Shown here in pieces: positions 570-52,940 of a DNA stretch of 64,000 nt. Each line of letters begins with the position of its first letter. Positions within the stretch are counted from its first letter, which is position 1. The position numbers and the translations under genes are program-made. Below the pieces are notes generated by a model, which did not search any database, was not told the origin of the DNA, and was given only the letters and a program-made list of their open reading frames with translations. Origin of the DNA: Psococerastis gibbosa (Eukaryota > Arthropoda > Insecta > Psocodea > Psocidae); contig OZ020492.1 of assembly GCA_963971405.1 (NCBI GenBank), positions 18,940,204 to 19,004,203 of the forward strand, in the 5' to 3' direction.

Positions 570-785
570 TACGGTGGGATCCCACGATCTATGCCTTATC
601 GGGCCATTGTATTTACCACTTTCACCGTTTTCAGTTTTTACTCCCTTTGATGCGAACTTGTCGATGAGTATCAAAATATGAAGCGTCAGGTCAAAGCTTA
701 ACTCGGTGGAATCCGTAGTGTAGTGGTAAACACGATGCCCCGGTAAGGAGTAGATCGTGGGTTCGAATCCCGCCGGATTCATTTT
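570..785 (+). repeat. SINE-2 (tRNA-derived), two head copies
   Basis: At about 711-783 there is a tRNA-like head. GAATCCG and CGGATTC could pair as a 7-bp acceptor stem, an A box lies near GTGTAGTGGTAAAC, and a perfect B box GGTTCGAATCC sits in a T arm. The anticodon arm does not fold, so this is a SINE head or tRNA fossil rather than a tRNA gene. An opposite-strand partial copy lies at about 575-640. Other pieces are at 20785, 21027 and 33295. Confidence 0.6.
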
Positions 786-26531: not shown

Positions 26532-26613
26532 CGACGAGGATGGGATTCGAACCCACGCGTGCAGAGCACATTGGATTAGCAGTCCAACGCCTTAACCACT
26601 CGGCCACCTCGTC
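26532..26613 (-). tRNA. tRNA-Ser (GCU anticodon)
   Basis: Cloverleaf of 82 nt on the minus strand. The acceptor GACGAGG pairs perfectly with CCTCGTC, and the discriminator is G. A box TGGCCGAGTGG, anticodon loop CTGCTAA (anticodon at 26578-26580), and a class II long variable arm GTGCTCTGCAC follow. The T arm contains GGTTCGAATCC. It decodes AGC/AGU serine codons. There is no intron and no mismatch in the stems I checked, so it looks functional, unlike the many tRNA-derived SINE heads nearby. Confidence 0.97.
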
Positions 26614-29892: not shown

Positions 29893-30021
29893 GTAAGTGT
29901 ATAAACAAAAATTAATTAGGTACTGGACCAAAGCTAGAACAACTACGGTACCTACATTTTTCTAAATTAAATAAAGAAAGAAATATTGAATTTTTTTGAT
30001 TTATTACTAAAATTACTAAAA
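29893..30021. other. AT-rich spacer
   Basis: Short AT-rich stretch after the candidate donor; nothing recognised. Confidence 0.4.
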
Positions 30022-30148
30022 CTTACACTCAACTAGGAAGACTCGGGACCGCCTGCTTGACATGCCCCCCAAAGCATGGCCAGAGACTCGAACCAACAAC
30101 CTTTCGGGTGAAAGTTGGAGTCTGTACCACTACCCTCCATGTCCTACA
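30022..30148 (-). repeat. SINE-1 copy 3, tail truncated
   Basis: Minus-strand copy that keeps the head (B box GGTTCGAGTC) and part of the body, with the 3' third missing. Confidence 0.8.
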
Positions 30149-30224
30149 TGTGTTAAAGAGAAACTTCTTAATCTAGGCTCTTGATATTGTGATTGGCAAC
30201 CTATTTGTGTGACGGGTCATTTTT

Positions 30225-30960
30225 TCTGTTTTGAACATTACTTCCTAAATTCTAGAAAATACGGCTTAAAAAATATTTCTCAAAAAGTCCTCAAAGTATT
30301 ATTATTTATATATATATATATATTGTGGTCGTTATTAGCATGATGTAAGCCCACTAGATTGAGTTTCCCCTGAAAATAAAAAAGAATGAAAAATTATTTT
30401 AAAAAATTATATCTCGGGACCAATTTTCGAAGTGTACCTTCTTAATGGAGGTTTTATCCTTTTTGCTGTGTGACGCAAACTGTGGGCAAACTACTCTATG
30501 AAATTCGGCTTGTATGGGTTCATAAAAAATTTCGAGAATTACTTTGCTATTTTGGGCTAACCCAATTTTGGGGGTTTTATTGCCCCATACATTTCGATAA
30601 ATGGCTAATAAAATAGTTAGTAAAAAATGGCTTCAGCCATTTCTTTTAAATTGACAATTAATATTGTAGTCGTTATTATCGATAGTGTTATTCAAACCCA
30701 CTAGGTCGCTTTCCCCTTATAGCTAACTCAATTTTGAGGGGTTGCATTTCTATATCATGCTTAAAACCGCCTTCTTCGACAGAACCCGTCAAATATATGT
30801 TTAGGGTGGAGTATATAACACCTTCTTCCATGATAATATCTAGGGGTTTTGAAAATGCGAATTAACCCCGTCGTCCATAAGGCCCTTCTAGTGATTGTTG
30901 AAGTTTCACTTCTATCTGTGGTCAAAAGCGCACATCCTTTTTTAAATCGCATGTAAAACT
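30225..30960 (+). repeat. Family R, degenerate copy without the CTGT run
   Basis: TGGGCAAACTACTC, GGTTCATAAAAAATTTCG, TTGTAGTCGTTATTATCGAT and CACTAGGTCGCTTTCCCCTT follow the family order. A second partial unit seems to precede it at 30310-30420. Confidence 0.65.
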
Positions 30961-31699
30961 ATTTAATAAATGCACTTAAATCACTTCTGCGGTCGCTGTT
31001 GTAGGTAAAAGCCGAGACGGACTCTTCCACGAGCCTGGTTAAACCTGGCGCACGCCTGTTACAATGTGTTTATAATAATTTTCAGCTTTTTCAACAATCT
31101 TTGTCTTCTGGGGGGGGGGGGGATTTCTCTGTTTTATTCTAACTTATTCTAAATTTTAACCAGGAACTCGGGGTTTAGAAACTAGAAAGTTGGCTTTTCA
31201 TTCACAGACTCATTGCTTGTACGCTGGATCGTGATTCCCTCTGGAATAGGCTGCCATTGTATGAATTGTTTAGATACTATTGCATTTGTTCGTTAGTTTG
31301 AAAAAAATCGTACAAGCCATAATTGTAATAACTAAAATATGTTGCATTAATAATTCTTAACAGTTCAATCTGTTCCGCTAATTTAGCTTCCCTTGATAAA
31401 GGCATTTGTTTTTTTAAACTAAAGTCACATTTTAGTAGATTCCTTCCTTAAATTGAGTGAAGGGACTATAAATGATACAAAGGCTTGCAATTTTAGATGT
31501 TCTGCCTAAACATGCGTCTTAGTTAAGGTCGATGTTATTAACGTTTTGAAAATTACGAAAATTGAGACTAATTTAACTAGTTCTCAAGGTGAAATATACT
31601 AAGAAAAATTAACAAAGTAATTAATCAAAATGCACCGTAACAGATATGTAGGCCTACATAAAATTAATAGGATACGGAACGATTTGCTTCACTTTGGAT
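30961..31699. other. Intergenic, nothing recognised
   Basis: AT-rich, no exon-like frame; a G run of 13 at about 31110. The left 100 bases contain GCGGTCGCTG, loosely like SINE-4. Confidence 0.35.
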
Positions 31700-31815
31700 T
31701 ATAAGTACTATTTATTGTTTCTATTACTAAGCCAACCTAGCGGTGTTAGGGCTATAAAGCCCTCTCTTACACTCAACTAGGAAGGCCCGGGACCGCCTGC
31801 TTTACATGCCCTCCT
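31700..31815 (-). repeat. SINE-1 copy 4, 5' truncated
   Basis: Only the 3' half is present (TTAGTAATAGAAACAAT tail, CTAACACCGCTAGG, GGCGGTCCCGGG), ending at CATGCCCTCC. The tRNA-like head is absent. Confidence 0.85.
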
Positions 31816-32040
31816 GTAAAATAAGTTAACTATTCCATTGTGTTTTGAGCATACGGTCCTCGATAGCGCTACAATAGAGAACAGTAAGCTTCCAATCATA
31901 GTTCGCGAAGCTTGCCTGCTTAACTAAATGGAACAATGTAAACTAATAGATCTAATAGTGCTTAAAGAATGAATAGAAAAAATTATATTACTCGTGACTT
32001 CGTGGTATTTCATTTTAATAAACAGACAAAAACTAAAACT

Positions 32041-32278
32041 TAGTGTTATAGCAAAGCTTGTTATAACTAGGCTACTATAACTAGAATCAGTAAAACCCAA
32101 ATAATCGTTAAAAAATTAACTTTATCTAAGATACCCACTGGTGTTAGTATAAAACCCTCTACTAGCACTACTAACACCAGTGGCTTTCTTTGATAAAGTT
32201 AATTTTTTAACGATTATTTGGGTTTTACTAATTCTAGTTATAGTAGCCTAGTTATAACAAGCTTTGCTATATAATACT
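32041..32278. mobile_element. Fold-back element, about 108-bp arms
   Basis: The arms 32041-32148 and 32169-32278 are near-perfect reverse complements (blocks GCAAAGCTTGTTATAACTAG and CAAATAATCGTTAAAAAATT in each). They are separated by only about 20 bp. Arm identity is high, so it is young or maintained by gene conversion. Confidence 0.85.
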
Positions 32279-33018
32279 TAGTTATATTGTTTGTTTGTTT
32301 AAAATAATTAAATAAATCGACAGATGTCAATTCGCTGCTAAAAGGGCCTAGTGGGGCCTATGTCTGCTAATTAGTTATAAATCACTTCCCTTCACTTTTT
32401 CCCTTGTCCAGTAACCCCGGACAAGGTGCAATACTTTGAATTTTTTTGTTATATATGCCGTATATAATTATCACGCTCAAGCTTCCGCTTATCGAGTGAT
32501 CGAATATATAATTTTAATTAATAATAATAAAACATTATAGTCTCCTGGCAAATGAATGAGATTCCTTTGAAAGATTTGATAATCAGGCGTAAAATGGCTA
32601 ATATAGTAAGTTTGTCTGTATTTGAAATTAAGTATGTTTTATTTCTTGTTTATTTTCCCTATCTTATTCAATTCTTTCAATTTAAGTGGCAATTTGTTAA
32701 ATATCTTATATTTTATATATACATACAATAATAACTACTGTATGATACAACAACAAATATAACCATGTATTTTTCCTAAAACAATTTTTAACCAAATACA
32801 AAATACAGTTGAAGTGCCCCCTCATGCCAGCGGCGTGCGAGGGTAGCACTCACTACCTAACTATAGCCTACCTAATTCATTACTGTAATTTTTTGAGTTC
32901 GTCCCTGGTCTATAGTCTTATAATTGTCCTGTATGTTGCTGTTCTTGTGTTACTGTTGTCTAAAGGTACTTGTGATAATATTAATATCACCACTACACGA
33001 AATTTTCTGAAATTCCAG

Positions 33019-33243
33019 GTTGGTTAATGAAATATCTAGGTGATGCTTCTTTATCGCTAATCAAAAAAATCCAAAGAATGGTCTTGTTCGTTACCTTTTT
33101 GAGCACACTCTGCATCTTTGTCTTTGAGAAATCGTCCACAACCGAGGCGCGCACATTGGCATGCGGCCACTCCGGTAATTGTCCGTCACAAATGTCCCTG
33201 TGCAGAGAGTTTCCGTGCACTGACGAGGAAGAAGCTGAAACAG
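33019..33243 (+). CDS. EFLamide-like neuropeptide precursor, exon 1 (signal peptide)
   Basis: Secreted neuropeptide precursor. Two in-frame ATGs exist, 33027 and 33078. I prefer 33078 because MVLFVTFLSTLCIFVFEKSS then gives a compact signal peptide. After it come RTLACGHSGNCPSQMSLCRE and FPCTDEEEAET, a Cys-rich then acidic spacer. TTCCAG at 33013-33018 looks like an acceptor, so a 5' leader exon is likely. The 3' end is ACAG followed by GCAAGT, a perfect-consensus GC-type donor, leaving one base (phase 1). The next exon (34396) starts in matching phase. A TAA eight bases past the exon end would otherwise end the frame as a short Cys-rich peptide, which is the main alternative. Confidence 0.65.
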
Positions 33244-33294
33244 GCAAGTAAAAAGGATCCGAAGGAGGAAATTAAAAAAAAAACTGTTCAGAGC

Positions 33295-33370
33295 AGGGCT
33301 CGACCCCACGATCTATACCTTGCCGGGGAATCATGTTAACCATCGTTTACGCATTCTACGGTCCTTTCAA
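33295..33370 (-). repeat. SINE-2 head
   Basis: Minus-strand GATCGTGGGGTCGAGCCC B-box block and CCCCGGCAAGGTATA relate it to the copy at 711. Confidence 0.55.
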
Positions 33371-33659
33371 GCAACAAACGCCCTGCATGCACATGGAGAA
33401 TAGAATGAAATTCGCTTTTCCATGCTCAATTAAATATTGAATGATCTACTCTTACCCCACACAAGCACCTGTCATCTAAAGGATAATGAGAAAGACCGTG
33501 CACTTGCTAGCCCCTTCTAGTAGTGAGGGTTCAACTTATAATGAGTCTTTTCCTCAATTTACTCTGCTCCGGCTGTGCGCGAATTCGAAGAGCATGAATG
33601 TACATAACATAATGTTTAAAAAACCTTCAAGGAATGACTGCACAATAAATGTTATTTGT

Positions 33660-33815
33660 AATAACAAAGGCCTTCACGGCTGGAGTTACGTGATGAAGCA
33701 GTCGAATCTGGGATGATAGGCCATGGCCGTTCTGAAAGCGTACTTCCAAACGATTCTTCAGCATCTGCGGTCAACGAAAAGTTTGGAAGTACGCTTTCAG
33801 AAGGACCAAGGCAAC
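33660..33815. repeat. HH-family repeat, compact hairpin
   Basis: CGTTCTGAAAGCGTACTTCC, then CAAAC at 33730-33752 faces GTTTGGAAGTACGCTTTCAG at 33781-33800, with GCATCTGCGGTCAACG between. The CTGAAGA box is still readable on the minus strand but the second half is lost, so it folds as a hairpin and cannot form the ribozyme core. Confidence 0.7.
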
Positions 33816-33973
33816 TCAAGGCAAACTTGACTTTAATGCTTTGTAAATACGCCCATACTTTTAGAAAAAAAGCACATTGATGGTTGAACTATCACTAGAA
33901 GAAGGCATTGGCATTATGAAGACTTTTCTGTATGCCAGAGTCCTCAGTGTGCTCTTGTATATTAAGTGAACAG

Positions 33974-34254
33974 CAGGCGCGGATCTAGAATGAGATCAAG
34001 GACTGAGTGGGCTAAGATTAAATTTCGATTTTTTTTAAAAATAGGTCTGAAATATTGGAATTTTACGCATCTTCAGAGCAATAAGGGCACTATATTGTAG
34101 GTAATTAATACAATCAAACACGAGGGGGGCCCGGGTCTCCCCCAGGAGAAAAATTGTGAAAAATAGGACTTAGGACTGAAATAGTGAGGACCCTAATGGG
34201 GGGGGGGGGCTATAGCCCCCATAGCCGCCCCCCCCCCCCGTAGATCCGCACCTG
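33974..34254. mobile_element. hAT-type MITE with perfect 8-bp TSD
   Basis: GTGAACAG on both sides (33966-33973 and 34255-34262). Ends CAGGCGCGGATCTA and TAGATCCGCACCTG (13 of 14 paired). Interior has GGGGGGGCCCGGGTCTCCCC-type G/C runs and family B phrases. It lies in intron 1 of the EFLamide-like gene. Confidence 0.92.
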
Positions 34255-34395
34255 GTGAACAGTAAGAAAACAGAGTACGTATGGGTTAGCTTACGCTGTT
34301 TGAGATGAGTTTTTTTAAGTTTTCATGCGAACCCGAAATACGATCTCAAAATTCACACAGAAAGTTAATTTATAAAGGTCATATTATTATTTCAG

Positions 34396-34600
34396 AACTT
34401 ATTGTCAAAAGGGGTATAGCACGTCTGTTTTATACACTGCATCCCAGGCCCTCCAGGGCCAAAATGGCCCCCAATAGGGCTCGCCGAATCACGGGCGACG
34501 AATTTTTAGGAAAACGATCCCATAAGGACCCATGTATTAATAAAAGAAGTGATGGCAATGAACTACTGGGCAAAAGAGATGAATCTCAACTACAGGACAG
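34396..34600 (+). CDS. EFLamide-like neuropeptide precursor, exon 2 (two peptides)
   Basis: Acceptor TATTATTTCAG, then 67 codons framed by split codons, and a GTATGT donor. After ELIVKRGIARLFY comes RARR, then ITGDEFLGKR, SHKDPCINKR and SDGNELLGKR. GKR is the classic amidation plus dibasic cleavage signal, so mature ITGDEFL-amide and SDGNELL-amide are expected. Arthropod EFLamides (GSEFLamide type, related to TRH and annelid EFLGamide) have this form, and their precursors repeat it. A closer acceptor at 34448 is in the same frame. It gives a shorter exon but would not fit the phase of exon 1. Confidence 0.82.
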
Positions 34601-34997
34601 GTATGTAATAAAATCGCAATGCGGCTGTCTTAAATATAGGTGTACCCGATGGGGGGGGGGGAGAAAAATTTAAGATACCCCGACATAACACAGCTTTATA
34701 TGGTAGTTCTTTTTTTTTTTTTTGCAAATGTCTGCTGCCAGTGGATTTCCCTAGGTAAGGATCACAGCCAAAGATTTGTGGGTTTAGAAGCCTGTTACTT
34801 AACAATTGCTAGGTCGAAATCATTAATCATTACAAATTTCAGTTGTTTCCTGCATGCTCTCAGTTTTTAGATTACAATTTATAAGTCTACTGGTATTTAT
34901 GTCTGTATTTTTAAAAAATACTTTTAGAATAAGATTATTTCTGTTAAACTAACTGTTGTTTTCTTGTTCTGTTGACTATGTGCTGTGTGTTGGAAAT

Positions 34998-35240
34998 TGT
35001 ATTGATTTTTACTTTCCTATTTATACGTTGGTATAAGGACAGCTTTGTGGAGGTAGAAATGTTTGAAAACGAGATTTCAGTAGGTTTGCGCGATTGGAGG
35101 AACCAGGAACTAAAAAATGTGGTTTTTACGAAATTTCTTTCGGTCTATTTTGTTCGTTGATTTGAGGGCAAACTACTCGGAGGATCTGATAAAAGGTTGA
35201 TAGGTTCTCAAAAATCATATTTCGGGACTATTTATCACTT
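34998..35240 (+). repeat. Family R, 5' part only
   Basis: CCTATTTATACGTTGGTATAAGG, AGCTTTGTGGAGG, GGGCAAACTACTCGGAGG and GGTTCTCAAAAATCATATTTCGGGAC-type blocks match the start of the family; the CTGT run is reduced and the rest is missing. Confidence 0.7.
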
Positions 35241-35917
35241 ATTATGACTGAAATCAAGACAAGCTCCTTACACTAAAAACTTTTATTTTTTTAATTTTCT
35301 AAGCATGAGGCTATTTTTGTCATAATAATAGCCTAGGCCTCCCCATATGCGGTCTGTCTGGAAGGAAGATACACTTATTCATGACAGTAAATGATGGGCA
35401 GTAAAGCACCTGAATGCACGTTAAGTAATTCAAATACGAGTGGGCTACCTGCCACAAAGTGTAAATAAAGAAATGAAGAAATAAAAGTACCATTGTAGTA
35501 AATAAAACCGGTACTTATATATATTAAAAATATACATATTATACAGTAAATAGAAACATAATCACCACTACACATACAGACATGCGAAGCTCTTGACGGC
35601 TCAACTCGAAGCTTACACAAACACTAAGGGTGCTATTTAGCGTAAATTGTGCTTTGATGGATTATAATAAAGAGTACAATCCAATTAACCCTCATATTTC
35701 ATCATATTTCTATTTAAAAACAGTTCTTTGCCCGGTGTTGATAAATTTTCAATCACCGGCGTCCATTGTTTGTTGGATTTTTGGAATGTTGCAGTCTTTT
35801 TGCATAGTTAGAGCTCTATTCACTGGGCATTTTTTTATTTATTATAAATGGCCGAAAATAGTAAGTTGATAAGCTCTACGCTTACTGATTTTAATATTTA
35901 TGTTGGTTTCTTTACTA

Positions 35918-35950
<33 letters not shown>

Positions 35951-36149
35951 ATATATTGTATGATTTTAACTTTGCTGAGGGACATAGGAAGATGATTATT
36001 TATAGTGAACTTTATTGGGGGCAAGAAGCCCTCATATGTAGATCAGTGTGTAGTACTTTATCAGTCGTGTTGTAGATTATTTTGACACATGTGACAGGAC
36101 TTAATCAACAGACGGGCAGACAGACAAATTTATTGAGTTAACATCTTCT
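35240..36149. other. EFLamide-like intron 2, left part
   Basis: Mostly AT-rich single-copy-looking sequence with a (TA)n/(TATG) microsatellite at 35918-35952. No exon candidate stood out. Confidence 0.45.
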
Positions 36150-36325
36150 TCGGTGGCAAAGAGGTAGCGTGCTTGTACTTGTGCGAGTTTCTACACAACA
36201 TGCGATCGGAGACTAATCGTAACTCAAGACAATTGTTAAGTTACTTAGTGAGGCGGCTGAACAGGTCAATCGGATGCATTCATTAAATTGTTTGTATGCG
36301 ATTAACTCTTTTAAAACCATTTATA
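36150..36325 (+). repeat. SINE-4 copy
   Basis: Plus-strand copy with GGTGGCAAAGAGGTAGCGTG, CTTGTACTTGTGCGAG, CATGCGATCGGAGAC and GTAACTCAAGAC, ending GTTTGTATGCGATTAACTC. Confidence 0.75.
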
Positions 36326-36345
36326 TAAATAAATAATACTTAATT

Positions 36346-36567
36346 TTACTGCGCCTTATTCTCATGGAGGGTAGGCGGCACGCCAACACAGTCCTGTTTT
36401 GGGCGTTTTGGGTTGAGAGCCCCAAATTTCTCATATCTCAGGCTGTCTTTCTTCCTAATGTAACTTTCGACCTCCCTGGTGGTTTTCCTCCTTGTATCTC
36501 CCTGCTCATTAAATACAGTAATAATTCCCAGGTTATAGAATAATTTGTAAGTACCGACTGACTGACT
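36346..36567 (-). other. Unrecognised 73-codon open frame without ATG
   Basis: A minus-strand frame opens after a stop and runs through TYKLFYNLGIITVFNEQGDT and LRYEKFGALNPKRPKQ to TAA at 36346. It has protein-like composition with many charged residues. An AG at a CCCAG in its first codons could be an acceptor. It lies inside the EFLamide-like intron on the other strand, so it is a nested gene remnant, a terminal exon of an unknown gene, or transposon debris. I do not recognise the family. Confidence 0.3.
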
Positions 36568-36839
36568 GGGTTAATTGTATGAGTGGGTCGAAAGGCCGAA
36601 AATAAAGAAAATTTTCTATCCTTCTTTCTTTCATATATTAATCCTCGTTAAAAACCATTTGGTTCATAGTGAAACTTGCTTGCATCTGACATAATTTGCT
36701 TTAAATCGATAAAATAGGACTTCGTTGTCCCGCGAATCGACAGTATCGACCTGTCAGTAAAAGATGCTGCATGATGTTGACAACCCAGCCCAGCTTTCTT
36801 GATCGATGTACAAGCAGATGATGTCAGATCCAATAAAAA

Positions 36840-37712
36840 GAACCGGTCCGAGTTCACTCGAACATGCTTTCCAATTTATCAAAATTATTAGATAGAGAAA
36901 ATTAGTAATTTTATTTTATGGCAAATATTTTTCCTATGGTTAAATTTCCGATAGCTCGGGGGGGGGGGGGCGGTTGTCCACCTGACGTCACTGGAAGTGA
37001 GGTAAATTCTCGATAGGTCAAACAAACACATTAATTACCACACAGCAATAATGGCAGGGCATGCAATGCATTTGAGCGCGAATTTTCTATCATTTTTTTC
37101 AAAAAATAATTTTTTGGGCAAAACCAAATATTTTTTTGGGAAAGCAACCTATCCGGTTTCGTTACTCAATTTAACATCTAAAACATGCTGGAAGGTAGAA
37201 ATCATCGATAGAAAGGTTTCGCATTTTTTAGTCATTTTTTCATTAAAATTTAGTTATTTTTATTTTTTTACCCCCCAGAAGCAAACTATCAAGGGGCGGG
37301 CAAGCGACCCCCCGCATTTTGTCAACATTAATAACGACTACAATCTACGAGAATTTAAAAGAAATCGTTGGAGCCGTTTTTGAGAAATAATTTTTTTAGA
37401 CGTTTTTTTGGAGTTTTTTTAAAATAAAACCCCCCAAATTGAGTTATGCCAAAAAAAAAATGGTCCCGAGGTATGATTTTTGTGAACCTACATGCCAAAT
37501 TTCACTCAAATCCACCGAGTAGTTTGCCCGGAAATAGACGAACAGACAGACCGACCGACAGACCGACAGACCGACCGACAGACAGACATTTTGTAAAAAC
37601 CACTTTTTTGGGTTCCTGGGACCTCAAAACGTGTAAATCCGTTGAAATCTCGGAATCGAAAATTTCGACCATCACAAAGCTTTCCTTATACTACGTATAA
37701 ATTGGAAAGCAA
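36840..37712 (-). repeat. Family R, well-preserved full copy
   Basis: Ends are GCTTTCCAATTTAT (from 36869) and ATAAATTGGAAAGC (to about 37711), an inverted pair. The GACAGACCGACC microsatellite at 37541-37588 is the CTGT run on the other strand. This copy gives the best view of the element's length, near 850 bp. Confidence 0.8.
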
Positions 37713-38059
37713 ACTAGTTCCACTATAATTTGTTCTAGCAGCTGCGAGAAGAGCAGGTAATGAAGTCGCAGATTCGCACACAAGGGACGGGGGTCGGGGG
37801 GGGGGGGGGGGGGCTACCCTGGCCCTGGGGCATAACGCTCTGCTGACAGTGCTTGTCTAATATCATCTCTTATACATCTTTTCAATCTGAATCAGCTTCT
37901 TCTGGAACTTTTCATATAAGACATCCCTGGTGGACAGTCTGATGATGAGCCGTTGTGGTCTAGTTTTATTCAGAGGGAGGATGAGGGGGGGGGGTCATCC
38001 TACACAATTTTTGCAATTTTTAGTGACTAGAGAAATAGTGTTTTTCTTCTGGTAAGATA
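37713..38059. other. Intron remainder with G run
   Basis: A G run of about 17 at 37797-37813 and another at 37984-37993; no ends could be paired to define a MITE. Confidence 0.35.
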
Positions 38060-38335
38060 GGGGTTTCGTGACGAAGCAGTCGAATCCGGGATGATTGGCC
38101 GTGGTCGTTATGAAAGCATACTTCCAAACGTTTCGTCAGCATCTGCCGTTAACATCTTCAGTGGAACTGCGTAGACTTCTAAGATTGTATCTCAGAGGCT
38201 CAGCAGCAAGTAGATGTCGACCGCAGATGTTGACGAAACGTTTGGAAATGTGCTTTCAGAACGACCACGGCCTATATCATCCCCTATTCTATTGCTTCGT
38301 CACGTAACTCCGACCGTGAAAGCTTTTGTAATTAT
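38060..38335. repeat. HH-family element, complete fold-back with two cores
   Basis: Most complete copy. Left arm 38066-38155 and right arm about 38214-38325 are inverted: each has GTGACGAAGCA, GGCCGTGGTCGTT, TTCCAAACGTTTCGTC in opposite orientation. The minus-strand core at 38112-38165 reads CACTGAAGATGTTAACGGC, AGATGCTGACGAAACG, TTTGGAAG. The right arm carries the second core's stem II and GAAAC but lacks CTGA. The outer tips are CGTGACGAAGCA and its complement beside CTCCGACCGTGAAAGC. Confidence 0.75.
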
Positions 38336-38404
38336 ATTGGGTGGTTTCTTTTCCAAACATTTTCTTTTTCCTAATATTTAATGGTATTTTTAAACTTCTT
38401 CCAG

Positions 38405-38558
38405 ATGTGAAAATCCTTATGAAGAGGAGCGTCCAAAAAGGGGACCACACCAAGGTAACGAGTTTCTTGGCAAGCGGGGCAACGAAATATCACTGCACGA
38501 TAAAATCGAAGACGAAGGCCATCCTGAGAAGCTTTTTTACATATATAGCGTTCCGTAA
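38405..38558 (+). CDS. EFLamide-like neuropeptide precursor, exon 3 (third peptide, stop)
   Basis: Acceptor CTTCTTCCAG; its first base completes Arg with AG from exon 2, then 50 codons to TAA at 38556. ENPYEEERPKR precedes GPHQGNEFLGKR, giving an expected amidated GPHQGNEFL. The C-terminal spacer is GNEISLHDKIEDEGHPEKLF, then YIYSVP. With exons 1 and 2 the precursor is 174 residues from ATG 33078. A misleading second frame (with GTAACG as a donor) exists but loses the peptide. Confidence 0.82.
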
Positions 38559-38702
38559 CGTGTGGAAATTTTAAAATTATTAGGCTTTCGTTTGGTTTTA
38601 TTTAGAGTAGGCTATCGTAAATTATAGTAATTTTATTGCAACTCTATGTGTGTTTATTTATAATTTTGTCAACAATGGAAAGGCTACGTTCAAGTAACAT
38701 CC

Positions 38703-39043
38703 AATGAGGTTCTGTAGGGACAGTTTTGGTCACTAGGTTCGCTGACGACAAACCGATATCCATATTATTCAAAATGGCCGCCTTTTGCATGTGAAAACTA
38801 AGCTCTTAGCATCTAATTAATTCTTTTACTATTTTATATATTATTTTTACTATGCCTGGACCTTATTTCGCTCCATATAATTTAATATATATATTCTCAA
38901 TGATTTATAGAAAAATATCACTTTAAAATAATGTATTTAAAAATCATTTTAAAATAGTATTGAGGCTTATGGAAAAATCAACGCTTGATATCATTGCAAC
39001 TGGTGCTGCCATCTACAAAATGACGTCACAAATGAACCTCATT
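38703..39043. mobile_element. Small TIR element
   Basis: AATGAGGTTC at 38703-38712 and GAACCTCATT at 39034-39043 are a perfect inverted pair. AATGGCCGCC and ATGACGTCAC inside recall the arms of the 10126-10957 element, so it may be a derivative. Confidence 0.5.
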
Positions 39044-39138
39044 ACTCCATTATAGTCCATTATTCAGTTTATGAGATATTGATCAAGATCGTGAAAAAGG
39101 GGACACTATATGGTAGAGGCGTTAATTTGGTGTCACAT

Positions 39139-39335
39139 CAGGACATGTAGAGTAGTGGTACAGACTCCGACTTTCACCCGAATGGTTGTTGGTTCGAGTC
39201 CCACACTTGCTACATTTTCTGGCCATGCTTCGGAGGGCATGTAAAGCAGGCGGTCCCGGGCTTTCCTAATTGAGTTTAAGAGAGGGCTTATAGCCCTAAC
39301 TCCGCTAGGTTGGCTTAGTAATAGAACAAAAAAAA
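39139..39335 (+). repeat. SINE-1 copy 5
   Basis: Near-consensus full-length copy: GGACATGTAGAGTAGTGG, GACTTTCACCCGAATGG, GGTTCGAGTCC, through to TTAGTAATAGAACAAAAAAAA. Confidence 0.92.
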
Positions 39336-39500
39336 TATCTTTTTTATTTTTTATTTACACCTGCCATAGCAGAGGTGGCACATGGGAGGCAATTGCAGCC
39401 CCAATTTCATCCGACTCCAAATTATGCCACCACAAAATTTCGAAGAAAACTCAATATTCAATATTTAAACAGTTGGAGACTACGTGAAAATTCAAATTCA

Positions 39501-39660
39501 GGACATTTAATGTATGTAGGCAGGGGCTCCTTCACTCAAAGGTTGTAGGATCGAGTCCCACACTGGCTCTGTCAAAGGACATGTAAAGCAGGCGGTCCCG
39601 GGACTTCCGAGTTACGTGTAAGAGAAAGCTCCACTAGGTTGGCTTAGTAATAGAATACAA
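39501..39660 (+). repeat. SINE-1 copy 6, rearranged
   Basis: Head partly lost, but GGATCGAGTCCCACACTGGC, GTAAAGCAGGCGGTCCCGGG and TAGGTTGGCTTAGTAATAG remain with deletions between. Confidence 0.8.
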
Positions 39661-39935
39661 CTCAATGTTTATTTATTTCTACATTGTTAATCATTTTGCG
39701 AGTAAACCATTCATTCATTGTATGAATGCCTGCTTAGAGATCCTATGACCCCTCCAAGTTCTAGGTATTGGAGGAAATTATATTAGATTGATAACAAAGG
39801 GAAATATTTTGTGAAATTTGCCATCCCAATGAAGGGGTTGAAATTGTGCTCTCTACCGTGACAGACGTCTTGCCCCAATTTTGGGATAGATTCAAATGTA
39901 AAGCTATCGTCATCTTCCTCGCTTGATAAGCTTAC

Positions 39936-40036
39936 CACAACAGTAGTTAGCTTATAAACTTGTAAATATTTCAGCATTTCCTCAGCGTGCACGGAATCGT
40001 GGTGATGGTATCGGTAGGTTAAACAAGCAGTAATCT
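39936..40036 (-). CDS. Candidate internal exon, unrecognised
   Basis: A pyrimidine-rich CCATGCCTTCATAG acceptor and a GTAAGC donor bound AG plus 33 stop-free codons: ITACLTYRYHHHDSVHAEEM and LKYLQVYKLTTVV. Composition is protein-like but the size is small and no neighbour exon was found, so it may be chance. Confidence 0.22.
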
Positions 40037-40171
40037 CTATGAAGGCATGGGAGCCCTAATTGCATTTTGATCTATATTTGTATTTATTGGAAATAAAGAA
40101 TTTTTATTATTATTATTATTATCTTTCACAGGTTTCCTTTGGACAATATGACCCTCCAGCTTACATAAATA

Positions 40172-40385
40172 AATAAATAAATAAGGACTTTTTATTGTTT
40201 CTATTACTAAGCCAACCTAGCGGAGTTAGGGCTATAAAGCCCTCTCTTACACTCAACTAGGTAGGCCCGGGACCGCCTGCTTTAGACGCCCTCCGAAGCA
40301 TGGCCAGAAAATGTAGCCAGTGTGGGACTCGAACCAACAACCTTTCGGGTGAAAGTCAGAGTCCGTACCAGTAAGCTACATATCT
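40172..40385 (-). repeat. SINE-1 copy 7
   Basis: Full-length minus-strand copy with (AAAT)n tail at its left and GGTTCGAGTCC B box on the minus strand near 40330. Confidence 0.92.
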
Positions 40386-40639
40386 TGACTTACATATCGC
40401 TTATGCCACAGGAGGCCAGGGACAGACAGATGGATTTAGAGGATGTGTATAGTGATGAAACGTTAATGGAGCCCAGCAGGTCAAGCAGTAGCTAGGGCTT
40501 TTAGGTTCTTTACTTGTAACTAGTCAAATTATTGCTGGTTTCTACTTATGCTGACTGCAGTCATGCCCCTGGATAATACCAAAATAGGCTGGTTCACCAT
40601 TATCACCATCATCACCATTATTGTAGATAATGTTGTTTC

Positions 40640-40990
40640 TAACGCCTGCTTTCAGCATTTCTGCTTGAAGCAACCCTGTTAGCCTGGCGGGGGATGTGAG
40701 TCTGTTTATTAACTTGAGGCACCCTAAGGGCAGACTCTTTCACCTCGGGGAAATGGGACTTGACTGACAGGGTGGACCTCCTGATTAAAGTGGGTTCCGA
40801 TCCACTTGGGGAACATGGTAAAGTCACACGATTAAATCGGAGGTGACCAGGACTCGACTTATGCTGCCTAAGCGCGTTATCATGTCCCACCATGTTCCCC
40901 TGCCAACGCTGTGCACACTGCCAAGTTTGCCGCAGTTTGAAACATGCTCTGCTCTAATGGATTCAACATGGTAAGGCCGTTGGCGCTATT
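40640..40990 (+). repeat. Dispersed repeat, pair with 58745-58920
   Basis: ACGCCTGCTTTCAGCATTTC, TTAACTTGAGGCACCCTAAG, GACAGGGTGGACCTCCTGAT and CCGATCCACTTGGGGAAC recur inverted at 58745-58920. No coding frame; GC content is above the local average. Confidence 0.75.
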
Positions 40991-41229
40991 GTAGATAATA
41001 ATAAGTGCTTTCAGTCAGATTTTAATTCATTCCTCTGCGGCCAATATAAACTCAGATATGAATTATATAAGGTTTCAATCGGCCGCCATCTTGTAACTAA
41101 ATAGTGGATCTAGCTGGTTAACGAACTCGATCAAGGCATTTGTATGATCAACTTTTGTGCCAAGTTTCATCAAAATCAGATAATATTTACGGAAGTTAGA
41201 GTGTTTCCTAAAATCTAGGGCTCTATATA

Positions 41230-41487
41230 GGTATTGTCATCCGCCATTTTCTATCCATTATAAGTCTGGTGTATAGGCCAAGTATTGGGTGTTTACCTAT
41301 TTATTATTAGAAATTTATCGTTGTTCATTTATTTTTATTTAAAAAACGTTCTACCAATTAGGGAAGTGTTTAATAAAAAAAGACTGAAACGTGTTTTCGT
41401 TTTTTTCAATCTTTTACTTTTCTTAAAAATAATTACAATACTTACCATATAGGAAATATAGGATAGAAAATGGCGGATGACAATACC
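41230..41487. mobile_element. MITE with perfect 27-bp TIRs
   Basis: 41230-41256 and 41461-41487 are exact reverse complements starting GGTATTGTCATCCGCC. Similarity extends outward through TATATA-CC. The interior is AT-rich and non-coding. Confidence 0.85.
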
Positions 41488-41510
41488 CGGGTATATAGTG
41501 CCTTACTAAA

Positions 41511-41514
41511 ATAC

Positions 41515-41554
<40 letters not shown>

Positions 41555-41600
41555 CATATAAAGAAAAACATATATATATGTAAATATATGTATATATAAT
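41511..41600. repeat. (TA)n/(ACAT) microsatellite
   Basis: Long TA run with CATACATATA interruptions. Confidence 0.9.
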
Positions 41601-42689
41601 TTTGAACGGAGGGGGGTTTTAGGCTCAGGGGGTCATGAAATGAAAAGTTTTGAAGAAATTTTCCGAAAGTCGAACATTGGTCGCCATCTCAGTAAGTAGA
41701 TGAATCTCCCTAAAACGGATATTGCTACGGCATGCTATTCCCCCTCAAATTTAACCCCATAGAGAAGAGGAAAATTCTCCTAACTCAGTGTTCAATTAAA
41801 AAGGTTGGGTAGGCCCTGTAGTTCCAGATATAAATGTCTCCGATACGGTAGTTTTCTTATTTCTGAAAAAAAAATGCTTGAAACCAGTCATTTATTATGT
41901 ATTATAAGACAAACGAAACACTTTTTAAGCTTGTAATTTCCCGAGAGTTTGAAGGTGGAGCTTTATAAAAGGTGTTTTCCACGAACGAAGTCTGTAATTT
42001 AACTTTTGTAAGTTTTGACGTCTTCACTTTGTGCGTCAGGCCGAGACAGGAATAGTTATTTAATAATTTAATAGGCGCTTCAGTCATAACGGGGGGGGGG
42101 GGTAGTCTGAAAGATCACCAATTAAGGAATTAATTAAGAGCTGGAACATGTATTTAGGCTATCGTGTATTTATTATTAGTTATTATGTTTCATTATTTGT
42201 TAAGGTAATTAAAAACTTGACCAATTGGTGAATATTTAATAAAATCAATTTTCAATGAAAAAATAGATCGTAGAGCCATTCTTTTGATGCCGAAAAGTAG
42301 AAGAAATGTTCTCCAAAATTTTGATAAATAGTATGTGTAAATTAACTAAAAGTAAAGTTTTGGAACTCTTTTGACGTGAAAATAGTCAGTGTCCGTTACT
42401 TTTTAACAAATTAAATTCTGAAAATGTCGCCAATGGAGTTAGTGGCGGCGAATATAATAATAATGTTCTGAATTACTTTTTATGAACGTAATCCAGTAGA
42501 CCTACTTTTAGTGCCCCAACGATTCCATGGATTTGGGACAGTGGCAAATTGGTATGCGTTCTCGTTGTCAACCTTCACCGACACAATTCGAAAGGCAGCG
42601 CCGGCGTCAAAAACTTCGGAAGTGCGTTCAGATATTGACAGTTTTTTGTACTAACCAATCACACACCAATTTTTTCCTATGACAAATCG
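41601..42689. other. Intergenic, mostly unrecognised
   Basis: Includes a G run at 42089 and a degenerate minus-strand family E scrap at 42515-42600 (GGTGAAGGTTGACAACGAGA, GCATACCAATTTGCCACTG on the minus strand). Otherwise nothing recognised. Confidence 0.4.
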
Positions 42690-48083: not shown

Positions 48084-49528
48084 TTAATAAAGGTATCCAC
48101 CGCTACTGTCCGTTCGCTGGGGAATTGTTTCAGGCACCCTGGCGGGTTGTTGCTGAACAGGTGCTGTGAAAACAGGTCGCGGAGCTGGGGCTGGAGCATT
48201 AAAAGTAGGTCTAGGAACTGGTGCTGGTCCAGCGGGAACACCGTACGAGGTGCTAGGAGCTGAAAAGACAGGCGTCGGGGCTGGGGCGTTGAAAACAGGT
48301 CGAGGGGCAGGTGCTGGAGCGGGGGCGTTAAAAACTGGTCGAGGGGCAGGTGCCGGAGCATTAAAAACTGGGCGAGGGGCAGGAGCCGGAGCATTAAAAA
48401 CTGGGCGAGGGGCAGGTGCGGGAGCATTGAAAACGGGAGCACCATACTGAGGGCTTGGCCTCGGGGCTGGGGCGGGTTGAAACTGTACAGGACGAGGCGC
48501 TGGGGCGGGTGCATTAAAAACTGGCCGAGGAGCAGGAGCAGGAGCAGTAAAAACTGGTCGAGGAGCTGGGGCGGGTGCTGAAATTTGAGGTGGTCCGTAC
48601 TGGATGTTAGGTCTAGGCGCTGGAGCTGGGAAACTGATTTGTTGCTGGGGTTGAGGAGCTGGGGCCGGCTGTGAATATGTAATTTGAGGGGCAGGCTGGC
48701 TGATCTGTATTTGAGGAGCGGGTTGAGGAGCTGGTTGAGGGGCTGGCTGAGGAGCTGGTACAGGGTAGGAATATCCACTGCTTACTGGGGCTGGCCGAGG
48801 AGCAGGGGCCGGCTGTGTATATGTGACTTGGGGAGCTGGGGCTGGCCGAGGAGCAGGGGCTGGCTGTGTGTATGTAACCTGGGGAGCTGGGGCCGGCCGA
48901 GGAGCAGGGGCCGGTTGTGTGTATGTGACTTGAGGAGCTGGGGCTGGCTGGGTGTACGTCTGCACGGGGGCGGGAGCGGGCCTAGGGGCTGGGGCAGGCT
49001 GTGTATACGTTACCACTGGGCGTGGGGGAGGAGCAGGTGCTGAAATTTGAGGAGGTCCGTACTGAGGCCTGGGTGCGGGCGCTGGGATACTGATTTGAGG
49101 CTGGGGCGCAGGGGCTGGTTGCGTGTACTGAATTTGAGGCTGGGGAGCTGGTTGCGTGTATTGTATTTGAGGCTGTGGAGCTGGTTGAGTGTATTGAATT
49201 TGAGGCTGGGGAGCTGGTTGGGTGTATTGTACTTGAGGCTGGGGTGCTGGTTGCGTATATTGTATTTGAGGCTGGGGTGCCGGCTGGCTGATTTGTATCT
49301 GAGGTTGAGGAGCTGGGACTGGGTAGGAATAACCGCTGCTTACTGGTGCAGGAGCTGGTTGAGGCTGAGGGGCGGGCTGTGGGGCGGGCTGTGGGGCGGG
49401 CTGTGGGGCGGGCTGTGTGTACGTTATCTGAGGAGCTGGTTGCGGGGCTGGCTGAGTATAGGTTATCTGCGGTGCTGGTTGTGGAGCAAGCTGAGGTTGC
49501 TGAGCAGGAACTGGGTAGTCATAGCCCG
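48084..49528 (-). CDS. Pro/Ala/Gln-rich secreted cuticle-like protein, main exon
   Basis: Follows a TTTTATTTCAG acceptor and is open for 480 codons to TAA at 48084. It opens GYDYPVPAQQPQ, then has repeats of three kinds: ITYTQPAPQPAP, IQYTQPAPQPQ and, towards the C-terminus, VFNAPAPAPRP. Spacers read SSGYSYPVPAPQP, and the end is RTDSSGGYLY. There are no cysteines and few charged residues, as in extensin-like or structural cuticle proteins. The mature function is inferred, not shown. DNA repeats of 30-45 bp match the protein repeats, so length probably varies between individuals. GC content is far above the window average, as expected for GCN/CCN codons. Tyr-rich spacers could take part in cross-linking (inference). 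Confidence 0.85.
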
Positions 49529-49949
49529 CTGAAATAAAATAAAAAAATACATAAGAGACAGAGAGAAGACATAAAATATGGATTAGAGAATTTCATGGAT
49601 GGACTATAATTTCTGGATAAATTTTTTAATGGACGCAACAGGAATCCACCCATTAATATATTATCATTTAAAAATGCGCTCAACCTTATTTTTTTTATTT
49701 AAGGGCGCTAGGCCACGTCTGTGACATATGCGCCAAGACTGTAAATAATCATAGGAATTACGCTATTTTTATAAGTTCAGTGTGTTGGAGAAAGGCTGAA
49801 AGTGAGATGACATTGCTAGCGTCGTCTCCCTGGATTAAGGGGAGTGTCGATTTTATGTTGTACCTTGTCATCCATATATTGTAGTTTAATAACCGACTAA
49901 AACACAGGCCCGGCCCGTCCTATGGGCAAGTGGAGCGGCCGCACCAGGC

Positions 49950-49993: not shown

Positions 49994-50501
49994 TTTGTGT
50001 TTTCAAGCGGGATAATTTAAAAAAAATAAAAATAAAATAATTTTTATAGAAGACTTGTTTTAAATCTGGCGCCAACCGGTTTAACGTGGTGGAACGTTAA
50101 CTCCTTCCACGACAACTCCGAGTGGTTATGTTGGCCACCCTAACTAAAATGGCAGATCATAGCATTGTTATTGGTTACTAATTTCAGCTTCACTCGTATC
50201 TCTTGTGAGATTTTTATAAATAATTGCAATTGGCAACAAAAAAATTTTAAGGTAAGCAGACGCAGATGCTTTATAGCGGTATTTGTATTAAGTTGTTGTT
50301 ATAATAAATAAGAGAGTTACAAAGCAGATTAAGAAGTGGCTCGGCTTGCAATTCTGCGAATGGTTTGTGTTTGTTATTAATATCAAATAAGAGAATTTAT
50401 GTCTACTGTATGTCCAACTTATTGTATATTTATTTATTTTGGACTTTATTTAGACTTAAGGTAATTTATGTGTCTTTTATTTTAGCAACTTTGCAAAGGC
50501 A

Positions 50502-52940
50502 ATGTGGAAAAAATTGTCAGGCGCCGGAAATGAGAGGAAAAGAAGAGCTAGGGAAGCTGAGAATGAAAAGCAAGCGGCGCAAATGGCCAAATTTCTAAAA
50601 CGGCCAGGTCCACATCCAGACCCAACCCAGCCCCCTAGTACAAGCAAGGAAAGTACGGTTGAGAGTGAGGCCCAGGCGGTTGCGCTGGACGAGGCCATTT
50701 TTGAGAACTTGCCTTGCAGTGAAGAAGAAAGAAGTTTTTCTATGGACATAGCCAAGTGGCCCTCTTACTTGTCTTCACAAGTTATTGACATGATCGTTGA
50801 AGAGGGGCCGCAAAACGGGAAACTCGATGATGATAAATACCCAAAAAATGAGAAAGGCCGGCATTTTTCCAACAGCCATTTCAAAAAAAGCATGCCCAAC
50901 GGAGAAGTATATGAGCGGCAGTGGCTTGTTTATTCCAATTCAACAAAGAAAGTATACTGCTTTTGTTGTCACATCTTCAAGCGCACAAGTCGTTGCCATC
51001 TTTCCAATGTTGGCTCTGACAACTGGCATCATTTGTCTCGTTTACTAACGAGCCATGAGTTTTCTGACGACCACCAGCAAGCCTTATTAACGTGGCTTGA
51101 AACGGCTAAAAGGTTAAAAAAATGTTGTGGCATAGATAAAGGGCTTCAGAAGCAATTGGAGGATGAAAAAGCAAGGTGGTCTTCTGTTATGGAACGAATG
51201 ATCGCCATCACGCTGTTTTTGGCTGAACACAATTTGCCTTTTCGTGGTAGCAAGGACACTTTATACACTCCAAGAAATGGGAATTTCTTAGGCCTTGTAC
51301 AATTACTTGGCCAATTCGACCCCGTCATGATGGAGCACTTGCGAAGAGTGATGCAGAAGGAATCCAAGCATTTTTATTTTAGCAAAAATATTCAAAACGA
51401 AGTAATTAAATTATTAGCTGACGAAGTAAGAGGCCAAATATTATCTAAAATAAGAAGTGCCAAGTATTTTTCTATAATTTTAGACTGTACTCCTGACATC
51501 AGCCACACTGAGCAAATGAGTGTCACCTTCAGATTTTTCGACGTCGATGAAGCGCGTGTGCGTGAGTGTTTTTTGACATATAAGCCAGTGGCTGACTCAA
51601 CTGGAGCCGGCCTGACGGGCTTATTTTTGGACGAAATAATTGATAAATATGGTATTGACATGAATGACTGCAGGGGCCAAGGATATGATAATGGTGCTAA
51701 TATGGTTGGACACATTAAAGGAGTTCAGAGTCGCATTGCTAAAACCTATCCACGAGCCTTTTTTAACCCTTGCGGCTGTCATAGTCTCAACCTTGTGGTT
51801 GCCGATGCAGCAAAAACTTCTATCAAATCAGTGTCTCTTTTTGGTGTGCTGCAACGGCTGTTTGTGTATTTCTCAAATTCAACAAAGCGGTGGAAGGTGG
51901 TCTCAGAGCATCTGCAAAATTTAAGCCTGAAAAAGGTTTGTGACACACGCTGGGAAAGCAGGATCAACAGCTTGAAAGCAGTGCGGTATCAGTATGCTGA
52001 AGTTAAAAGGGCTCTGGAGGATGAATATGAACAATCAACGGACCCTGTTGCAAGCTCAGAGGCTGAATCGCTTCTTGTAAATTTGGAAAAGTTCGAGTTC
52101 TTAATGGCGTTAGTCATATGGTACGATGTTTTATTCCAGGTTAATCTAGTAAGCAAAACAATGCAATCTGAAACCATGGATTTGTCCGAAGCTACAAAAA
52201 TTATGAATAAATGCTTGAAATTTTTAAAAGAATACAGAAGTACAGGTTTCACTTCTGCACTCATCACTGCCAAAGAAATCGCTGAAGAAGCACAAATCAC
52301 TCAGGAGTTTGAAACTGTCCGTCTGCGAAGGAAAAAGAAGATGTTTTCTTATGAAAATCAAGACGAATCTCCTACTGACCCAGAAACAGCGTTTCGCACC
52401 TCTGTCTTCTATCCAATGATTGACACAGCCATTAATTCATTGCAGTTGCGCTTTTCCCAATTAAGTGACATTAATAGTACATGGCAATTTATGTACGATT
52501 TGAAAAAGATCGACCATAATGGTTTGAATGCGGCCTGCTCAGATTTAGAATCTGTCTTAACCCATGGCGCTCTCAGTGATATTTCGGGTACCGAGCTAGC
52601 CCAAGAAATAAGGAGCCTTAGTGCGTTCTTAGGCGGCGACGATGGGCATCCAAAGGGGGTTCTTGAGTTTTTGGCAAAGCATTGTTGGAAAGATATGTTT
52701 CCAAACGTTTGGACAGCTCTCCGCATTTTCATTACTATACCGGTCACTGTTGCTAAGGGAGAAAGGAGCTTCAGCAAGCTAAAATTGATAAAGACCTACC
52801 TAAGGTCTGTTTTAGCTGATGAGAAATTGTCGGACTTAGCCATATTATCCATAGAAAATGAGATCGCCAACAATCTCTCCTATGATCATTTGATTAAAAA
52901 ATTTGCTAGCATCAAAGCTAGGAAGGAGAAATTTCAATAA
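50502..52940 (+). CDS. hAT transposase, ZMYM/TTF-finger type (812 aa)
   Basis: Cut-and-paste transposase of the hAT superfamily. N-terminal basic stretch ERKRRAREAENEK (about 11-23) could act in nuclear entry. A TTF/BED-like zinc finger is centred on C153, C155, C156, H157 (YCFCCHIFKR). The RNase H-like core has D328 in ILDCTPD, D396 in GYDNGANMVG, C424/C426/H427 in CGCHSLNLVV, and CDTRWES near 480. The third acidic residue is E754 in KGERSFSKLKLIK, leading into the C-terminal dimerisation region (LAILSIENEIA). Length and order match animal ZMYM1/DUF4371-like hAT proteins. The first ATG of the frame is used; no splice is needed. All three catalytic positions are present, so activity is plausible. 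Confidence 0.96.
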   Translation: MWKKLSGAGNERKRRAREAENEKQAAQMAKFLKRPGPHPDPTQPPSTSKESTVESEAQAVALDEAIFENLPCSEEERSFSMDIAKWPSYLSSQVIDMIVEEGPQNGKLDDDKYPKNEKGRHFSNSHFKKSMPNGEVYERQWLVYSNSTKKVYCFCCHIFKRTSRCHLSNVGSDNWHHLSRLLTSHEFSDDHQQALLTWLETAKRLKKCCGIDKGLQKQLEDEKARWSSVMERMIAITLFLAEHNLPFRGSKDTLYTPRNGNFLGLVQLLGQFDPVMMEHLRRVMQKESKHFYFSKNIQNEVIKLLADEVRGQILSKIRSAKYFSIILDCTPDISHTEQMSVTFRFFDVDEARVRECFLTYKPVADSTGAGLTGLFLDEIIDKYGIDMNDCRGQGYDNGANMVGHIKGVQSRIAKTYPRAFFNPCGCHSLNLVVADAAKTSIKSVSLFGVLQRLFVYFSNSTKRWKVVSEHLQNLSLKKVCDTRWESRINSLKAVRYQYAEVKRALEDEYEQSTDPVASSEAESLLVNLEKFEFLMALVIWYDVLFQVNLVSKTMQSETMDLSEATKIMNKCLKFLKEYRSTGFTSALITAKEIAEEAQITQEFETVRLRRKKKMFSYENQDESPTDPETAFRTSVFYPMIDTAINSLQLRFSQLSDINSTWQFMYDLKKIDHNGLNAACSDLESVLTHGALSDISGTELAQEIRSLSAFLGGDDGHPKGVLEFLAKHCWKDMFPNVWTALRIFITIPVTVAKGERSFSKLKLIKTYLRSVLADEKLSDLAILSIENEIANNLSYDHLIKKFASIKARKEKFQ

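What the first reader, a model, noticed from the sequence alone, without database searches (positions are those of the whole stretch)
33019..38558. EFLamide (TRH-like) neuropeptide precursor assembled from three exons
Seen: three exons whose phases fit exactly (1, then 2) join a signal peptide to ITGDEFLGKR, SDGNELLGKR and GPHQGNEFLGKR, each set off by basic cleavage sites. Established: GKR marks C-terminal amidation and cleavage. Arthropod EFLamides, related to TRH and annelid EFLGamide, share the EFL-amide end. Inference: this is the EFLamide gene of this animal, with an unusual ELL variant and only three copies.
Basis: partly seen in the sequence, partly recalled or inferred. Interest (0 to 1): 0.8.

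Follow-up and report, generated by a model that had tools for sequence, protein, structure and literature searches.

The report
Barkfly EFLamide (TRH-like) neuropeptide gene
This is the gene for a small set of signalling peptides (EFLamides, the insect counterparts of TRH) in a barkfly, found together with a likely receptor gene; it is a sound new example of a known family, with the small twist that one of its three peptides ends in ELL instead of EFL.

Summary
Three exons (33078 or 33027-33243, 34396-34600, 38405-38558) join in frame through a phase-1 GC-AG intron and a phase-2 GT-AG intron. They give a 174- or 191-residue precursor with a hydrophobic leader and ITGDEFLGKR, SDGNELLGKR and GPHQGNEFLGKR behind dibasic sites. 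A codon-level pattern for G-x-E-[F/L]-L-G-K-R matches three times in the 409-Mb genome, all here, with no match for the reversed-pattern control; a protein search finds no second locus. The genome also holds a TRH-receptor-like gene on contig C3 that scores 217 bits to the human TRH receptor against 120 for the next receptor family. A phase-2 intron before the last peptide exon is also reported in mantis and cockroach orthologs. ELLamide is already known from mantises; a precursor carrying both EFL and ELL is the mild novelty among what I could read. Expression, processing and receptor activation are untested. This is a new member of a known kind.

The parts
33019..33243 (+). Exon 1 of the EFLamide precursor gene: ATG at 33027 or 33078, hydrophobic leader (MVLFVTFLSTLCIFVF...), cysteine-bearing acidic spacer; GC donor CAG|GCAAGT, phase 1. 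33019 follows an AG and may be the acceptor of a 5' UTR exon
34396..34600 (+). Exon 2: spacer, then ITGDEFLGKR and SDGNELLGKR; donor CAG|GTATGT, phase 2
   Evidence: only match in genome
34488..34517 (+). ITGDEFL-amide peptide with GKR (predicted [M+H]+ 793.4090)
34548..34577 (+). SDGNELL-amide peptide with GKR (predicted [M+H]+ 746.3679)
38405..38558 (+). Exon 3 (last coding exon, entered by a phase-2 intron): spacer, GPHQGNEFLGKR, C-terminal tail, stop TAA
38442..38477 (+). GPHQGNEFL-amide peptide with GKR (predicted [M+H]+ 997.4850)

Best explanation
The locus is the EFLamide (arthropod TRH-type) neuropeptide precursor gene of the barkfly Psococerastis gibbosa. The precursor enters the secretory pathway through its N-terminal signal peptide. 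Prohormone convertases cut at the dibasic sites, a carboxypeptidase trims KR, and the exposed glycine is turned into a C-terminal amide, giving ITGDEFLamide, SDGNELLamide and GPHQGNEFLamide. These most likely act through the TRH-receptor-type G-protein-coupled receptor encoded on contig C3 at 37.99-38.13 Mb. Shown here: the gene structure, motif, uniqueness and presence of the receptor gene. Inferred: expression in neurons, processing and the ligand-receptor pairing.
For: Exons join in frame at good splice sites. Three G-x-E-[F/L]-L-GKR units occur; 0 of 200 simulations reached three E[FL]LGKR, and they are the only three matches in 409 Mb, with 0 control matches. A precursor search of the genome at E up to 10 finds only these three exons. 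The strongest hydrophobic stretch, residues 18-33 of the 191-residue form, fits a signal peptide. The phase-2 intron before the last peptide exon is as reported for mantis and Blattella orthologs. The motif fits decapod AMGSEFLamide/AVGSEFLamide and mantis SLGSELLamide. A TRH-receptor-like gene is present: collinear exons with consensus splice sites on C3, best solved-structure match the TRH receptor at 216.8 bits against 119.7 for neuromedin-U receptor 2. [quoted passage not shown]
Against: There is no transcript or peptide evidence. Intron 1 uses a GC donor, which is legitimate but rarer. The precursor has no Pfam match at E up to 1, and no precursor from another species could be aligned, so homology rests on the short motif, gene structure and receptor. 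One of three peptides departs from EFL. A TM6-TM7 exon of another gene, 2 Mb away on C3, also has the TRH receptor as best solved match (51.5 against 40.9 bits), so 'TRH receptor best' alone does not single out the partner.
Confidence: 0.95

Rival explanations
1. The gene is a real EFLamide gene, but the exon model is partly wrong (a different first exon, or an extra small exon in the introns).
For: Exon 1 rests on a GC donor and has no database match; the introns are 1.15 and 3.8 kb and carry repeats; a possible 5' UTR acceptor lies just before 33019.
Against: Phases fit exactly, splice sites are strong, and exon 1 supplies the hydrophobic leader that the gene needs. The nearest GT donor (exon end 33247) gives a product full of stops. 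No other E[FL]LGKR lies in the window.
Confidence: 0.15
2. An unrelated amidated-peptide gene has converged on the EFL-amide ending.
For: The shared motif is short and the precursor matches no Pfam family.
Against: Three G-x-E-F/L-L copies, the phase-2 intron, the absence of any other match to the GxE[FL]LGKR codon pattern in the genome and the TRH-receptor-like gene all fit EFLamide.
Confidence: 0.03
3. Pseudogene or chance open frames.
For: No expression data could be examined.
Against: Open frames, consensus splice sites, intact cleavage sites, and 0 of 200 simulations reaching the motif count.
Confidence: 0.02

Closest known systems
Mantis and Blattella ELLamide (EFLamide orthologs; PMC11874938, passages seen)
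   Same: G-x-E-L-L-amide end (mantis SLGSELLamide), basic cleavage sites, phase-2 intron before the last peptide exon, EFLamide-receptor ortholog in the genome.
   Different: Only the last coding exon is known there and its peptide ends ELL; here the whole precursor is predicted and carries both EFL and ELL.
Decapod GSEFLamides (PMC4696782, PMC7212414, PMC4655400, passages seen)
   Same: x-G-S-E-F-L-amide paracopies in a precursor with a signal peptide.
   Different: The residue before E is S in decapods, N or D here; the incomplete Scylla and Lysmata precursors are each reported with five such peptides.
EFLa of wingless hexapods (PMC4770511, passages seen)
   Same: Multi-copy EFLamide precursors in hexapods.
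   Different: On average 4.5 (Collembola) to 18 or more (Protura, partial) copies there, three here.
Annelid EFLGamide and vertebrate TRH (PMC11039832 passage; peptide structures recalled)
   Same: An EFLGa peptide is the ligand of the Platynereis TRH receptor.
   Different: The annelid peptide keeps a glycine before the amide; TRH is a tripeptide (recalled).

Membership tests
Arthropod EFLamide precursors | Amidated peptides ending G-x-E-F-L, flanked by basic cleavage sites | tested here: met
   2 of 3 peptides end EFL, 1 of 3 ends ELL, an ending known from mantises
Arthropod EFLamide precursors | N-terminal signal peptide | tested here: inconclusive
   Hydropathy peak 2.4 over residues 22-32 of the 191-residue form; no dedicated signal-peptide predictor was available
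Arthropod EFLamide precursors | Last peptide exon preceded by a phase-2 intron (reported for mantises and Blattella) | tested here: met
   Donor at 34600 and acceptor at 38405 are phase 2
Arthropod EFLamide precursors | TRH/EFLamide-receptor ortholog in the same genome | tested here: met
   C3:37991712 to beyond 38132844; TRH receptor best at 216.8 bits, next family 119.7. No family tree was built; the top hit by E-value, on C13, is instead neuromedin-U-receptor-like (143.5 bits against 88.5 for TRH receptor)
Arthropod EFLamide precursors | Sequence alignment with precursors of other species | not tested
   No full precursor of another species was seen in the passages read; the hemipteran EFLa paper was not held
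Arthropod EFLamide precursors | Neuronal expression and mature amidated peptides that activate the receptor | not testable with these tools
   Needs RNA, mass spectrometry and a receptor assay

The most novel reading that the evidence does not exclude
A mixed EFL/ELL precursor acts on a receptor gene that has two tandem candidate last exons (TM7 plus C-tail). The two peptide types and the two receptor forms may have become functionally distinct, making this insect a snapshot of how an EFLamide system can move towards ELLamide.
Probability: 0.1. Interest if true: 0.5.

Novelty: new member of a known kind. Interest (0 to 1): 0.3.

Why it matters
EFLamide genes are hard to find because the conserved part is so short (stated in PMC6585902, passage), and the listings of searches showed me no report of one from Psocodea. 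A complete predicted ligand gene plus a likely receptor gene in a barkfly gives the order a tractable TRH-type system, and the EFL/ELL mixture suggests that the ELL ending seen in mantises can arise copy by copy.

Tried and rejected
Considered the GT donor just downstream (exon end 33247, GGCAA|GTAAAA): it gives phase 2 and a product with many stops, so the GC donor CAG|GCAAGT was preferred. Looked for further peptide copies (two looser patterns) in 30000-42000 on both strands: besides the three, one hit at 34803 in a frame broken by stops. Pfam gave no family for the precursor. ARAGORN gave 26 mitochondrial tRNA calls; I dropped four that lie inside nad4 (two), the rRNA region and cox2 as spurious. 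Early guesses about the animal (crustacean, springtail) were dropped after the mitochondrial gene order. Two searches for the receptor's last exon in the first 110 kb found nothing; four more stretches were fetched and two candidates appeared. The best hit by E-value of the TRH-receptor search (C13) was set aside first by eye and then by test: it is neuromedin-U-receptor-like. Most of the other 29 hits were not classified.

Full report
What is in the sequence. A script re-derived the gene from the raw bases. Coding exon 1 runs from the ATG at 33078 (or an upstream in-frame ATG at 33027) to 33243 and ends CAG|GCAAGT, a GC donor with an otherwise excellent consensus. Exon 2 is 34396-34600 and ends CAG|GTATGT. 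Exon 3 is 38405-38558 and ends in TAA. The product is 174 or 191 residues. Its most hydrophobic stretch is at the N-terminus (11-residue hydropathy mean up to 2.4), as expected for a signal peptide, though no dedicated predictor was available. Seven cysteines are present in the 191-residue form, four of them in the spacer after the leader. The peptides are RR-ITGDEFL-GKR, KR-SDGNELL-GKR and KR-GPHQGNEFL-GKR.

Is it more than chance? In the window, E[FL]LGKR occurs three times in six frames; 200 first-order Markov copies averaged 0.01 with a maximum of 1, and 0 of 200 reached three; G[NDS]E[FL]LGKR was 3 against 0 in all 200 runs. GKR alone is not enriched (24 against a mean of 21.4). A degenerate codon pattern for G-x-E-[F/L]-L-G-K-R, with x limited to codons RRY, searched over the 409,210,807 bases held, gave three matches, all in this gene, and none for the reversed-pattern control. 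A protein search of the genome with the precursor gave three matches at E up to 10, the three exons themselves. So the gene is single-copy at this sensitivity.

Which animal. The window lies at G000:C20:18940204-19004203 in a 409.21-Mb assembly. The mitochondrial contig C68 is 17,084 bases. It reads with the invertebrate code, has trnL(UUR) between cox1 and cox2, and its order includes cox3-G-A-R-F-nad5-nad3-N-S1-E-H-nad4 and M-C-I-Q-nad2-W-Y-cox1 (protein genes; tRNAs from 26 ARAGORN calls, of which four inside other genes were dropped). [quoted passage not shown]). The genome note for Psococerastis gibbosa reports 409.21 Mb and a 17.08-kb mitochondrial genome (PMC12559846, abstract and passages); it lists 69 scaffolds where 68 contigs are held here. 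I take the animal to be P. gibbosa.

The receptor. A search with the human TRH receptor (typed from recall; a 108-residue part verified against PDB) found 29 matches at E up to 1e-6. The best by E-value, on C13, proved neuromedin-U-receptor-like (143.5 bits against 88.5 for the TRH receptor). The most TRH-receptor-like pieces by identity lay on C3, and the stretch around two of them was read. Four exons with consensus splice sites, C3:37991712-37991921, 38010368-38010622, 38025375-38025752 and 38083513-38083673, join in frame through phase-0 introns; the fourth ends in phase 2. Two candidate last exons, beginning at 38124263 and 38132844, both fit and give 379- and 392-residue receptors. Against solved structures the joined protein (359 residues, first candidate last exon, cut short) scores 216.8 bits to the TRH receptor, aligned in two blocks over its residues 21-163 and 175-337, and 119.7 to the next family, neuromedin-U receptor 2. 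The single exon with TM2-TM4 also has the TRH receptor first and neurotensin receptor 1 second (62.2 against 55.1 bits). One caution: a TM6-TM7 exon of another gene, about 2 Mb away on C3, likewise has the TRH receptor as best match (51.5 against 40.9); its tandem exon pair recalls the ecdysis-triggering hormone receptor (recalled). No tree was built, and most of the 29 matches were not classified.

Comparison with what is known. Decapod relatives include AMGSEFLamide and AVGSEFLamide (PMC4696782, passages). In mantises the peptide is SLGSELLamide, and the last coding exon of mantises and Blattella follows a phase-2 intron (PMC11874938, passages), as here; their complete precursors are not known, so whether EFL copies remain there is open. 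A Gryllus fragment ends LGEFLGK (PMC9960350, passage). Wingless hexapods average 4.5 (Collembola) to 18 or more (Protura, partial) copies (PMC4770511, passages). Insects with an EFLamide gene have the receptor ortholog (PMC6585902, passage). An EFLGa peptide is the ligand of the Platynereis TRH receptor (PMC11039832, passage). The hemipteran EFLa paper was not held, and the locust paper was seen only as a citation, so their precursors were not compared.

Verdict. The ELL copy is less unusual than thought, since ELLamide is known in mantises, but I saw no precursor with both endings in what I read. The search listings (15 of 15, 12 of 204 and 12 of 12 matching papers listed) showed no report of a psocodean EFLamide; I saw titles and abstract starts, and passages of some, not whole papers. 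Expression, processing and receptor pairing are inferred.

Noticed in passing
G000:C3:38124263 (L038) and 38132844 (L039): The TRH-receptor-like gene has two tandem candidate last exons, each encoding TM7 and a different C-terminal tail, which suggests two receptor forms by alternative splicing.
   Followed up: partly
G000:C3:35979860-35980126 and 35983651-35983917 (L015, L014): Two tandem TM6-TM7 exons of another TRH-receptor-like gene; for the first, the TRH receptor is the best solved match (51.5 bits). The layout recalls the A/B exons of the ecdysis-triggering hormone receptor (recalled).
   Followed up: partly
window 50460-52940 +: A long open frame for a hAT-family transposase (DUF4371 and hAT dimerisation domain).
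   Followed up: partly
window 48084-49592 -: A 502-residue open frame of proline/alanine/glutamine-rich repeats (QPAPQ, APAPRPVF), with no Pfam match; possibly a cuticle-type protein.
   Followed up: no
window 33682-33775 and 38060-38311: Related copies of a palindromic repeat lie in both introns of the EFLamide gene (direct 86% identity; inverted arms of 57-64 nt among those listed), probably a small inverted-repeat mobile element.
   Followed up: no
G000:C14:11085363-11086704 and many small matches: Nuclear copies of mitochondrial cox1, including one nearly complete copy in two pieces on C14.
   Followed up: no
window 709-781 + and 26532-26613 -: Two tRNA genes by Rfam.
   Followed up: no
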